From: Blastococcus xanthinilyticus | GTDB taxonomy: Bacteria > Actinomycetota > Actinomycetes > Mycobacteriales > Geodermatophilaceae | NCBI RefSeq assembly: GCF_008124835.1 | Contig: NZ_VNHW01000010.1 | Span: forward strand, 1-64,000 | Direction: 5' to 3' | Length of the DNA: 64,000 nucleotides | Shown here: piece after piece, positions 8,018 to 10,680 of the stretch | Layout: every line of letters starts with the position of its first letter | How positions within the stretch are numbered: position 1 is the stretch's first letter | The notes under the pieces: generated by a model | The model's input: only the letters and a program-made list of their open reading frames with translations | Database searches by the model: none | What the model was told of the DNA's origin: nothing | Made by a program: the position numbers and the translations under genes

Positions 8018-8085
8018 CGCCGGCCGCGGCCGGACCTCTTCCGGAGCCGGGCGGCGTCCCGCTGCAGGCACGGTTCTGTCAGTGG

Positions 8086-8101
8086 TCGAACATACGATCG
8101 A
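8086..8101 (+). promoter_or_regulatory. SOS (LexA) box-like operator
   Basis: TCGAACATACGATCGA matches the actinobacterial LexA consensus TCGAAC-N4-GTTCGA at every defined position but one (A for the first T of the second GTTCGA half). It sits inside a longer imperfect dyad, GTGG...CCAC, covering 8082-8105, and overlaps the -10 element of the DUF222/HNH gene that follows. Confidence 0.75.
8093..8098 (+). promoter_or_regulatory. -10 element of a probable leaderless promoter for the DUF222/HNH gene
   Basis: TACGAT fits the TANNNT -10 consensus and is followed by exactly seven bases and then the ATG at 8106. Transcription would start at or next to the start codon. The element is buried in the LexA-like box. 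Confidence 0.6.
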
Positions 8102-8105
8102 CCAC

Positions 8106-10250
8106 ATGACGGACGCCGCCCCTCCGACCCGCGCCCGGCCCGGTGCGCCGGCGGCGGGCTGGGCGTCCGGGCCGCTGGGTGCCGTGCAGGCCGCCGGCCG
8201 GGAGATCGCCCGGCAGACCGCCCTGCGGGCGCGGGCGGTGGCCGAGTTCGCCGCCAGCCGGCCCGCGTCGGCCGACCGGCAGCCGGGGGAGCCCGGCGCC
8301 ATGGGCGCCGACCGCCGGGCGGTCCGTCCGGACGTGCTGGCCGGGGTCAGCGAGTGGGCGGTCCAGGAACTGGCCCTCGCCCAGGAGATCTCGTCGCAGG
8401 CGGCCGAGGCGCTGCTCACCCGCTCGCTCACCCTCGTGCACCGGCTGCCGCGCACGCTCGACGCCCTGGAGGCCGGCGCGCTCCACGAGGGGCACCTCTG
8501 GCCGATGCTCAGCACGGTCGCGCCGATCGCCGACGCGAAGCTCCGCGCCGCGGTCGAGTCCGAGGTGCTCGCGTGGGCCGCCGGGCGGATCACCACGCCC
8601 GCGCAGCTGGGGGACAAGGCGCGGCGGGTGGTGCTGAGGCGAGATGCTCGCGACGCCGCAGGACGGCTGGAGCGGGCGCTGCGCGGCCGGGGGGTCTCGG
8701 TCCGCCCTGACTCCGAGGACGGGATGGCGGTGCTCAGTGCGCTGCTCACCGTGCCCGAGGCGCAGGCGCTGCTCGATGCGCTCGGCCGGTACGCCGACGC
8801 CCTGGCGGCCGATCCGGACGACACGCGGACCCGCGGCCAGCGGATGGCCGACTGCCTGCTCGACCTGGTCCTGCGGCCGGGCGAGAAGGACCACGCACCG
8901 GTGCAGGCGCAGCTGACCGTGGTCGCCGGTGTGCGCGCCCTGCTGGGCAGCGATGAGCCGGGCGAGATCGGCGGCCAGGTGGTGCCCGCCGAGCTGGTGC
9001 GCGCCCTGGCCCGCGCGCTGGGCCTGTTCCCCGGGGATGCGGCAGCCGAGGTCGGCCCGCCCGCGCCGGGCCCCGCCGACCCGGCCCCCGCACCGCAGCG
9101 CCGGTACCCCACCGAGGAGGAGGAGCTCGCCGACTGGTGGGCGGCCACGGAGGCGCTGGTGTTGCGGGAGTGGGGCGGCGAGCCCGACCCGCCACCGGAG
9201 GTGGTGGAGCGGCACCGGGCCGAGCAGGCGCGGTTCGACCGCATGCCGACTCCCGTGGAGATGGGGGTGTTCGACGCGCCGCCCGATGGCACGTCCTGGC
9301 CGGGCGGAGCGTTCTGGCACGAGAAGTTCTGGGAGGAGGAGTCTGGGCACGACGCCTCCTGGCAGGACGAGTCGCCACCCGACGGATGTCCGTATGACGA
9401 GTCGCCGCGTGACGGGTCGCCTTTCGACGGTTCGCGCCTCGACGGGTCTTCGCTCGGGTCCCGGCCCAACGGGGTACCGCCGGCCGGTGCTGGGCCAGCA
9501 GTGCACGACGGGCCCGGGCCGGCCCCGGGAACCTGGGCGGCGGCCGACCGTGCCCTCGACGGCGCGGGCACGGCGCTGCTCGATCTGCAGCGAGCGGTGG
9601 GCCGGGCCGAGCGCGCGGTCACCGACGCCCAGCGGGCAGACGCCGCCGACGAACAGGCCTGGGAGCGAAGCCCGGCGGGCCGCGTGACCGCCGCCGACGA
9701 CACGCTGGCAGCCCTCGCCGCCGCCACCGCGGCCCAGCGCACCGCGCTGGCTGACCTGCTGCAGGCAACGGGCGGCGGCGGGCTGGTCGACCGCCCGCGG
9801 ATCGCCGTCGTCGACGAGCTCACCGGCGCGCTGCTGGCGCTCACCGACGCCCGCGAGCTGCGTCGGCTCGGCACCTGCGGGGCCACCGGCTGCCGCCGGC
9901 ACCCGGGGTCCTGCACCCACGACCTGACCGGCCGGCCAGGACTGGGTCCGCCACCACCCACGCGGGGCTACCGCCCCGGCGCCGTCCTCGACCGGCGCGT
10001 CCGCGCCCGTGACCGCCGCTGCCGGTTCCCCGGTTGCCGCCGGCCGGTGCCCCGCGGCGGCGAGCTCGACCACGACCGCCCGTACCCCGACGGCGAGACC
10101 AGCGCGGCCAACCTCGTGGGCTACTGCACGCCGCACCACCGGGGCAAGCACCAGGCACCCGGCTGGCGGAACGAGCTGGCACCCGACGGCGCCCTCACCG
10201 TCACCACGCCGAGCCGCATGGTCGCGACCACCACGCCGCCGCCCTACTGA
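8106..10250 (+). CDS. DUF222 / HNH endonuclease signature protein (13E12-like)
   Basis: 714 residues. The N-terminal half is the DUF222 region of the 13E12 repeat family, with a long helical part and a variable, acidic, low-complexity middle. The C-terminus has the HNH nuclease module: C-R-F-P-G-C zinc knuckle, ELDHDRPYPDGE with the catalytic His, NLVGYC with the Asn, and CTPHHRGKH. These proteins are predicted DNA endonucleases of unclear role; copies in mycobacteria are induced by DNA damage. The middle contains six tandem five-residue repeats (residues 421-450). The ATG at 8106 is preceded by a leaderless-type -10 and an SOS box, which supports this start. Families like this occur in many copies in Geodermatophilaceae. 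Confidence 0.92.
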   Translation: MTDAAPPTRARPGAPAAGWASGPLGAVQAAGREIARQTALRARAVAEFAASRPASADRQPGEPGAMGADRRAVRPDVLAGVSEWAVQELALAQEISSQAAEALLTRSLTLVHRLPRTLDALEAGALHEGHLWPMLSTVAPIADAKLRAAVESEVLAWAAGRITTPAQLGDKARRVVLRRDARDAAGRLERALRGRGVSVRPDSEDGMAVLSALLTVPEAQALLDALGRYADALAADPDDTRTRGQRMADCLLDLVLRPGEKDHAPVQAQLTVVAGVRALLGSDEPGEIGGQVVPAELVRALARALGLFPGDAAAEVGPPAPGPADPAPAPQRRYPTEEEELADWWAATEALVLREWGGEPDPPPEVVERHRAEQARFDRMPTPVEMGVFDAPPDGTSWPGGAFWHEKFWEEESGHDASWQDESPPDGCPYDESPRDGSPFDGSRLDGSSLGSRPNGVPPAGAGPAVHDGPGPAPGTWAAADRALDGAGTALLDLQRAVGRAERAVTDAQRADAADEQAWERSPAGRVTAADDTLAALAAATAAQRTALADLLQATGGGGLVDRPRIAVVDELTGALLALTDARELRRLGTCGATGCRRHPGSCTHDLTGRPGLGPPPPTRGYRPGAVLDRRVRARDRRCRFPGCRRPVPRGGELDHDRPYPDGETSAANLVGYCTPHHRGKHQAPGWRNELAPDGALTVTTPSRMVATTTPPPY
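9366..9455 (+). repeat. In-frame 15-bp tandem repeats inside the DUF222/HNH gene
   Basis: Six units encode DESPP, DGCPY, DESPR, DGSPF, DGSRL and DGSSL, i.e. D-(E/G)-S-x-x. The five-residue rhythm can be traced more weakly upstream through the Trp-rich stretch starting near 9290. It is a repeat-expanded linker between the DUF222 part and the HNH part. Confidence 0.75.
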
Positions 10251-10278: not shown

Positions 10279-10680
10279 ATGACGCGATTCGTGATCGACG
10301 CGCCCACGATGCTGCACCTGGTGGCCGAGGGCATCCCCGTGGCCGCCGGCCACCAGCTGGTCGCGCCGCAGGTGCTCCGCTCCCAGGCGCTGGACCTGCT
10401 CTTCGCCGCCGTACGTCGTGGTGAGCTGACCGAGCGGGAGGCCCTGGCGCAGCACGACGCGATGACCCGCGTGAAGATCCGCTCGCTCGGCGACCGCGTC
10501 TCCCGTCAGGTCGCCTGGGCGATCGCCCGCGAGCACGGCCTGGACTCGACGGCCGACGCCGAGTACCTCGCCGTCACCCGGCTGCAGGCCGACCTTTTCG
10601 TCTCCGTCGACCCGGCCGCCCGGTCGCGCGCCGAGCAGGTCGTCCCGGTGGGAACGGTCGACCAGCTGGCGGCGGTGTGA
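10279..10680 (+). CDS. PIN-domain protein (VapC-like), orphan
   Basis: 133 residues. The start MTRFVIDAPTMLHL places the first PIN aspartate at residue 7, followed by a central helical part. The late motif STADAEYLAVTRLQADLFVSVDP supplies the other acidic residues expected in a PIN-like ribonuclease (D/E in the ADAEYLA region and D in SVDP). Proteins of this kind are annotated as VapC-family toxins in actinobacteria, but no antitoxin-sized partner gene lies beside it, and a 28-base gap separates it from the HNH gene. It may be a housekeeping RNase-like protein. The stop codon TGA directly abuts the stop of xpb on the other strand (TGATCA), with no spacer at all. Confidence 0.8.
   Translation: MTRFVIDAPTMLHLVAEGIPVAAGHQLVAPQVLRSQALDLLFAAVRRGELTEREALAQHDAMTRVKIRSLGDRVSRQVAWAIAREHGLDSTADAEYLAVTRLQADLFVSVDPAARSRAEQVVPVGTVDQLAAV

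What the first reader, a model, noticed from the sequence alone, without database searches (positions are those of the whole stretch)
8082..8108. LexA-like SOS box sits on the -10 element and start codon of a DUF222/HNH endonuclease gene
TCGAAC-ATAC-GATCGA (8086-8101) differs from the actinobacterial LexA consensus TCGAAC-N4-GTTCGA at a single base. The -10 TACGAT lies inside it and is seven bases from the ATG, so LexA binding would block a leaderless promoter directly. It implies that this putative nuclease is made only after DNA damage. From memory, 13E12/DUF222 genes of mycobacteria are damage-induced, so the finding extends a known regulon to this gene.
Basis: partly seen in the sequence, partly recalled or inferred. 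Interest (0 to 1): 0.72.

Follow-up and report, generated by a model that had tools for sequence, protein, structure and literature searches.

The report
Two DNA-damage switches in one promoter
A nuclease-like gene of a soil actinobacterium starts from a promoter in which the likely binding sites of two different DNA-damage regulators, a repressor (LexA) and an activator (PafBC), are fused into one short element that related bacteria have preserved; it looks like a double lock, which is a testable variant of known regulation.

Summary
TCGAAC-ATAC-GATCGA (8086-8101) has one mismatch to the LexA consensus, overlies the -10 TACGAT and ends four bases before the ATG (8106) of a DUF222 gene. In 40 of 40 close homologues from 22 genomes of the genus (Blastococcus) a LexA box sits in the same register on the -10, while the flanks vary.

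TGTCAGTG-N8-TACGAT (8077-8098) perfectly matches the RecA-independent promoter motif of the damage activator PafBC, so the LexA operator is nested in a PafBC-type promoter. Of the 40, 26 carry TGTC at -26 and no TTG at -35; 14 carry a TTG -35 with a 17-bp spacer and no TGTC. None has both or neither; the tree needs three switches. The 'mismatch' base is base 5 of the -10 and is A in 30 of 40. The composite recurs before DUF222 genes elsewhere: 16 of 18 exact sites in 298 genomes of the order, 13 of 21 near-exact sites in 396 genomes of the phylum, no reversed-control hits.

Best reading: LexA repression on top of PafBC activation, probably an AND gate. Binding, induction and gate logic are untested.

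The parts
8077..8084 (+). PafBC-type -26 element TGTCAGTG (RecA-NDp 5' half)
   Evidence: Perfect match to TGTCRGTG-N8-TANNNT; TGTC at this place in 26 of 40 close homologues, octamer within one mismatch in 25 of these 26; mean 1.73 bits per base in the 26
8086..8101 (.). LexA operator (SOS box) TCGAACATACGATCGA, one mismatch
   Evidence: same register in 40 of 40 close homologues
8093..8098 (+). -10 element TACGAT, shared by the PafBC motif and the LexA box
   Evidence: TANNNT at this place in 40 of 40 close homologues
8097..8097 (+). the base at which the box departs from the LexA consensus (A for T); base 5 of the -10
   Evidence: A in 30, T in 8, G in 2 of 40 close homologues
8106..8108 (+). 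start codon ATG and inferred transcription start (leaderless mRNA)
   Evidence: ATG/GTG 3-4 bases after the box in 39 of 40 homologues; the transcription start is inferred
8106..10250 (+). DUF222 gene, 714 aa, HNH-like C-terminus
8364..9014 (+). DUF222 domain (PF02720, residues 87-303, E 3.5e-15)
10008..10160 (+). HNH-like motif (C-x4-C ... LDH ... NL ... HH); no Pfam HNH hit
   Evidence: alignment with relatives, three of which have Pfam HNH hits; negative

Best explanation
8077-8108 is a composite DNA-damage promoter. RNA polymerase with the housekeeping sigma factor has a -10 (TACGAT) but no -35, so it needs PafBC, an activator switched on by single-stranded DNA, at the -26 element TGTCAGTG. 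A LexA dimer bound to 8086-8101 covers the spacer, the -10 and the region up to the start point, and blocks the polymerase until RecA filaments on single-stranded DNA cause LexA to cut itself. The DUF222/HNH-like gene would therefore be off until both sensors report damage (AND logic), and would be translated from a leaderless mRNA. Shown here: the anatomy, its conservation, genes for LexA, RecA, PafB and PafC in the genome, and the exchange of the -26 element for a -35 in some relatives while the operator stays. Inferred: protein binding, start point, induction and AND logic.
For: LexA box in the same register in 40 of 40 close homologues in 22 genomes, flanks poorly conserved. Perfect PafBC motif. 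The motif marks damage genes in this genome: of its 8 exact sites, those that point at an identifiable gene precede recA, uvrC, dnaX, pup, an ABC-transporter gene and this gene; two precede genes without a family. PafC (Pfam HTH_PafC) and a PafB-like WYL/WCX protein lie near the Pup ligase gene. lexA and recA carry SOS-like boxes. Promoter classes exclude each other: 26 with TGTC at -26 and no TTG at -35, 14 with TTG at -35 (17-bp spacer) and no TGTC, 0 both, 0 neither; three changes on the tree. This fits sigma adaptation, in which PafBC stands between promoter and the sigma domain that reads the -35 (PMC11804915, passages). A composite of the same register precedes a paralogue only 31% identical (G000:C3:99710) and DUF222 genes in other families. 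Genes with both motifs are known: recA, uvrA, uvrC (PMC8223512, passages).
Against: No binding or expression data. The TGTCRGTG consensus is recalled from mycobacterial work, not taken from a call, and PMC9380542 reports that an initial search suggested the M. smegmatis PafBC motif is not conserved in Streptomyces venezuelae. The window's own box has GATC where the boxes at lexA and recA keep GT, so LexA affinity may be low. With LexA and PafBC both answering single-stranded DNA, an AND gate and simple additive control cannot be told apart from sequence. 2 of 18 exact and 8 of 21 near-exact composite sites are not at DUF222 genes (recG, two sigma-factor genes, an abhydrolase gene and others). 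14 of 40 close homologues do without the -26 element, and none of the 8 more distant ones has either arrangement.
Confidence: 0.72

Rival explanations
1. Plain SOS gene: LexA is the only regulator and the TGTCAGTG similarity is incidental; a weak -10 promoter is freed when LexA is cut.
For: The LexA box is in all 40 close homologues, the -26 element in only 26; 14 relatives run on a -35 plus LexA.
Against: Where the -26 element is present it is as conserved as the box (1.73 against 1.70 bits), and it never coexists with a TTG -35 (0 of 26). The composite recurs outside the genus with no reversed-control hit.
Confidence: 0.12
2. PafBC gene with a vestigial or non-functional LexA box; the palindrome is kept only because it overlaps -10 and spacer.
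For: The box departs from consensus at a core base; a ruvC promoter of M. tuberculosis is described in a reference title (seen; the paper is not held) as induced RecA-independently despite an SOS box.
Against: Spacer bases TCGAAC are not needed by the PafBC motif (N8) yet are conserved, and they stay conserved in the 14 homologues that lack the -26 element (box 1.89 bits). Seven of the 8 more distant homologues have a perfect box at another place.
Confidence: 0.1
3. OR/additive logic: each regulator acts alone, PafBC raising and LexA lowering one promoter independently, without a strict double requirement.
For: The M. smegmatis recA region has separate PafBC-dependent (P1) and LexA-controlled (P2) promoters (PMC11804915), and recA here also has separated sites.
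Against: In this gene the LexA box lies on the same -10 that PafBC would use, so the polymerase cannot use one without the other being cleared; a geometric argument only.
Confidence: 0.3
4. Chance palindrome in a GC-rich genome.
For: About 3 sites at up to one mismatch are expected in the genome under independent bases at an assumed 74% GC, and 6 reversed-control sites exist.
Against: 40 of 40 close homologues in register; 0 reversed-control hits for the composite in 298 and 396 genomes.
Confidence: 0.01

Closest known systems
recA, uvrA and uvrC of mycobacteria (PafBC and LexA/SOS dual regulation)
   Same: Both a RecA-NDp/PafBC motif and an SOS box upstream (PMC8223512, passages)
   Different: The recA region holds two separate promoters, P1 (PafBC) and P2 (LexA) (PMC11804915, passages); here both sites share one -10 and one start point. 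The layout at uvrA and uvrC was not seen
SOS-regulated HNH endonuclease genes of M. tuberculosis (13E12 family by recall)
   Same: Five putative HNH endonucleases induced by mitomycin C in a RecA-dependent way (PMC8151990, passages)
   Different: No PafBC element is mentioned for them in the passages read; the present gene combines both
PafBC promoters (RecA-NDp) with sigma adaptation
   Same: -26 element plus -10, no -35; PafBC contacts sigma domain 4 (PMC11804915, passages)
   Different: Here a LexA operator fills the spacer and -10; relatives have a -35 in place of the -26 element under the same operator
Classical LexA operators overlapping -35/-10 elements (recalled)
   Same: Repressor covers core promoter
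   Different: The underlying promoter looks activator-dependent instead of a complete -35/-10 promoter

Membership tests
LexA (SOS) regulon | SOS box close to TCGAAC-N4-GTTCGA at the promoter | tested here: met
   One mismatch; in register in 40 of 40 close homologues
LexA (SOS) regulon | Genome encodes LexA and RecA with SOS boxes of their own | tested here: met
   lexA TIGR00498, recA TIGR02012; boxes with one mismatch at G000:C16 upstream of both genes
LexA (SOS) regulon | LexA binds and represses; induced by damage in a RecA-dependent way | not testable with these tools
   Needs gel shift and expression data
PafBC (RecA-NDp) regulon | TGTCRGTG-N8-TANNNT upstream | tested here: met
   Perfect at 8077-8098; consensus letters recalled
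PafBC (RecA-NDp) regulon | Promoter lacks a -35 | tested here: met
   ACGGTT at the -35 place; 0 of 26 P-class rows have TTG there
PafBC (RecA-NDp) regulon | Genome encodes PafB and PafC near pafA | tested here: met
   Pup ligase PF03136; PafC with HTH_PafC PF19187, WYL and WCX; a second WYL/WCX protein directly before it
PafBC (RecA-NDp) regulon | Transcription depends on PafBC | not testable with these tools
   Needs a pafBC mutant
DUF222 (PF02720) | Domain hit above the gathering score | tested here: met
   56.6 bits against cut-off 24.4
HNH nuclease | Pfam HNH hit | tested here: not met
   None at E up to 0.001 for the whole protein or up to 5 for the C-terminal 156 aa
HNH nuclease | Conserved Cys pair, His, Asn, His of relatives with Pfam HNH hits | tested here: met
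   Alignment: C25, C30, H42, C60 invariant in 7 of 7; Asn and HH present in the window protein
Leaderless promoter | Start codon about 7 bases after the -10 | tested here: inconclusive
   Spacing right in the window, and 39 of 40 homologues have a start 3-4 bases after the box; start of the mRNA not mapped

The most novel reading that the evidence does not exclude
The element is a coincidence detector that reads the same signal, single-stranded DNA, through two independent sensors (RecA/LexA and PafBC) on one -10, and is a recurrent lock of an actinobacterial family of potentially self-harming DUF222/HNH nucleases. The family repeatedly exchanges the PafBC key for an ordinary -35 while keeping the LexA lock, so that paralogues in one cell are tuned to different damage thresholds.
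Probability: 0.4. Interest if true: 0.72.

Novelty: new variant of a known kind. Interest (0 to 1): 0.56.

Why it matters
Actinobacteria have two parallel damage responses, and how they are integrated is not settled. Genes with both sites are known, but here both regulators are forced onto one -10, which gives a compact promoter for testing AND against additive logic. The natural swap between a -26 element and a -35 in close homologues is an evolutionary test of sigma adaptation by PafBC. It also suggests how a family of uncharacterised nuclease-like proteins, at least 13 copies in this genome, may be kept silent.

Tried and rejected
Chance origin of the box: rejected by footprinting. The extended palindrome GTGGTCGA-n8-TCGACCAC in the window: the outer bases vary in homologues, so treated as chance. 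Small downstream gene (10279-10677) as an operon partner: among the loci searched it was found in two other genomes (L065; L068 and L163, which are the same contig), and in 1 of the 5 loci long enough to show it for certain (L160-L164); no Pfam family; left out. Phage origin of the gene: one partial hit to 8% of the protein in an unannotated phage record; no support. NCBIfam gave no family for the protein. Literature for the composite: the listings and the passages read showed no LexA box nested in a PafBC promoter, nor DUF222 named with either regulator. Smollett 2012 and Dawson 2010 are not held; Gamulin 2004, Davis 2002 and Mueller 2018 were not looked up. So 'not in print' is not claimed.

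Against my reading: none of the eight more distant homologues (47-52%) has the P or S arrangement (7 of 8 have a perfect box, mostly not over the -10; 1 of 8 has none); 4 of the 13 own-genome DUF222 genes with upstream sequence have no LexA box within 2 mismatches in the stretch scanned (L002, L004, L011, L015); 8 of 21 near-exact composites in the phylum are not at DUF222 genes; within the window alone a PafBC-like site at up to one mismatch is reached in 22 of 100 shuffles.

Full report
THE OBSERVATION. The sequence is as reported: TCGAAC-ATAC-GATCGA at 8086-8101, TACGAT at 8093-8098, ATG at 8106. It is the only site in the window with at most one mismatch to TCGAAC-N4-GTTCGA. The gene is a 714-aa DUF222 protein (PF02720, residues 87-303, E 3.5e-15). 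Its C-terminus carries the Cys pair, LDH, NL and HH residues of DUF222 relatives, three of which score as HNH, although Pfam gives no HNH hit for it. 'Nuclease' is therefore an inference.

The -10 belongs to a second motif, TGTCAGTG-N8-TACGAT at 8077-8098, a perfect match to TGTCRGTG-N8-TANNNT. I recall this consensus as the RecA-NDp motif of Gamulin et al. 2004; no call gave its letters. Passages read in PMC8223512 and PMC6789036 say that PafBC acts through RecA-NDp. PMC11804915 says that PafBC inserts itself between the promoter and the SigA domain that usually contacts the -35, and engages a -26 motif. The motif behaves as expected in this genome: 8 exact sites (0.4 expected under independent bases at an assumed 74% GC). 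They point at recA, uvrC, dnaX, pup, an ABC-transporter gene (whose called start lies before the motif), this gene, and two genes without a family. The genome has pafA, a PafC with the PafC-specific HTH domain, and directly before it a PafB-like WYL/WCX protein. It has lexA and recA with SOS-like boxes. As in M. tuberculosis (PMC8151990), the PafBC-like site next to lexA points to the divergent gene, which here looks like a LysM protein (YneA model, below its cut-off).

FOOTPRINT. The first 305 residues found 51 matches in 23 genomes of the genus. The genus is Blastococcus by its named relatives. Three matches begin at contig ends and were dropped; 48 were examined. Forty of them (57-100% identical; one, L082, with a stop inside the match) form one clade in 22 genomes, and all 40 have a LexA box (0-2 mismatches) at the same place over a TANNNT -10. 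In 39 of 40 an ATG or GTG follows the box after 3-4 bases. In the 26 rows with the PafBC element the mean information is 1.70 bits per base in the box and 1.73 in the -26 octamer, against 0.25 at -70 to -41. The single departure from the LexA consensus is base 5 of the -10 and is A in 30 of 40 rows, T in 8 and G in 2: the two overlapping sites share that base.

A NATURAL SWAP. Of the 40, 26 have TGTC at -26 (25 of them with at most one mismatch in the octamer) and none of these has TTG at -35. The other 14 have TTG at the -35 place (1-3 mismatches to TTGACA), with a 17-bp spacer, and none of these has TGTC. On a protein tree the two states need three changes; starred branches force at least two for one group and three for the other. 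The 14 lie in 12 genomes, 9 of which also hold PafBC-type members, so loss of PafBC is not a general cause. In the 14, the LexA box stays conserved (1.89 bits) while the octamer falls to 0.48. This is what one expects if PafBC and a -35 are interchangeable ways to recruit polymerase and LexA is the constant lock. The other 8 matches (47-52%) form a separate clade: 7 of 8 have a perfect box and 1 has none, and none of the 8 has TGTC or TTG at the fixed places.

BEYOND THE CLADE. The exact composite TGTCRGNGNTCGANCNTANGNTCG occurs 18 times in 298 genomes of the order, in 14 genomes, with 0 hits for the reversed pattern. Sixteen of the 18 precede a DUF222 gene: 8 are members of the window clade (compare), 5 were confirmed by Pfam, 2 have starts nearly identical to confirmed ones, and 1 is a frame-disrupted copy recognised by eye (L150). 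The other two are a DUF4259 gene and an unclear one. A slightly stricter pattern (TGTCRGTG) with one mismatch allowed gave 21 sites in 15 of 396 genomes across the phylum, again 0 controls. Thirteen of the 21 precede DUF222 genes, one of them frame-disrupted (L175). The rest are recG, two sigma-factor genes, an abhydrolase gene, a transporter gene and three without a family; for some of these the gene scanned starts 90-140 bases away. The own-genome paralogue at G000:C3:99710 has the same composite (one mismatch in the octamer) though its protein is only 31% identical to the window's over the aligned part.

OTHER DUF222 PROMOTERS IN THIS GENOME. PF02720 gave 15 matches: 13 genes with upstream sequence, one cut by a contig end (L013) and one second piece of a gene already counted (L014). 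Seven of the 13 have a LexA box with at most one mismatch upstream, two more have two mismatches, four have none. Two contig ends carry further copies 88-90% identical to L006, each with a box, so 9 of the genome's 32 boxes at up to one mismatch are at DUF222 genes. A different element, TGTCGTACCCC-N5-TANNNT, has 6 exact sites in the genome; all 6 precede DUF222 or DUF222-like starts, and its reversed control has none.

MECHANISM. Shown: anatomy, conservation, register, mutual exclusion of -26 and -35, presence of genes for the regulators. Inferred: PafBC, activated by single-stranded DNA, recruits SigA polymerase; LexA on 8086-8101 blocks the -10; RecA filaments remove LexA; the mRNA starts at or next to the ATG. 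Because both sites use one -10, clearing LexA and engaging PafBC are probably both needed. AND against additive control cannot be settled from sequence.

WHAT IT IS CLOSE TO. Genes with both sites are known (recA, uvrA, uvrC; PMC8223512), but the recA region has two separate promoters (PMC11804915). RecA-dependent induction of five putative HNH endonucleases in M. tuberculosis is published (PMC8151990). An HNH DNase of M. smegmatis that cuts DNA and kills on over-expression is published (PMC9416677, passages); whether it is a DUF222 protein was not tested. So the finding is a new variant of a known kind of control, not a new kind of system. All papers were read as passages found by search words; none was read whole.

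Noticed in passing
G000: L002, L004, L011, L012, L184 (499-520), L185 (516-537): A second promoter element, TGTCGTACCCC-N5-TANNNT, has 6 exact sites in the genome, all before DUF222 or DUF222-like starts, 0 reversed controls. It has TGTC at the same distance from the -10 as the PafBC element, so it may be read by PafBC or by another WYL-type activator.
   Followed up: partly
L012 1200-1225: In one of these the LexA-like box (2 mismatches) is nested in the same register as in the window, a possible third promoter class under the same operator.
   Followed up: no
L032 1501-1522 (G000:C3:286662-286683): An exact PafBC-type motif points at pup (Pup-like protein, PF05639), so the protein-tagging system that removes damage-response proteins may itself be under PafBC in this organism.
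   Followed up: partly
window 10279-10677 (+): Small gene (133 aa, no Pfam family) 28 bases after the DUF222 stop; 80-91% identical homologues follow the DUF222 gene in two other genomes.
   Followed up: partly
L110 1609-3090: lexA with a divergent LysM-like gene, three LexA boxes and a PafBC-like site (1 mismatch) facing the LysM-like gene, the arrangement described for M. tuberculosis lexA.
   Followed up: partly
L171, L174, L176: Composite-like sites (1 mismatch) 4-5 bases before recG and before a sigma-factor gene in other families.
   Followed up: no
G000 contig ends: C3, C12, C18, C27, C30: Several contigs of the assembly end inside DUF222 copies, so the gene count is a lower bound.
   Followed up: partly
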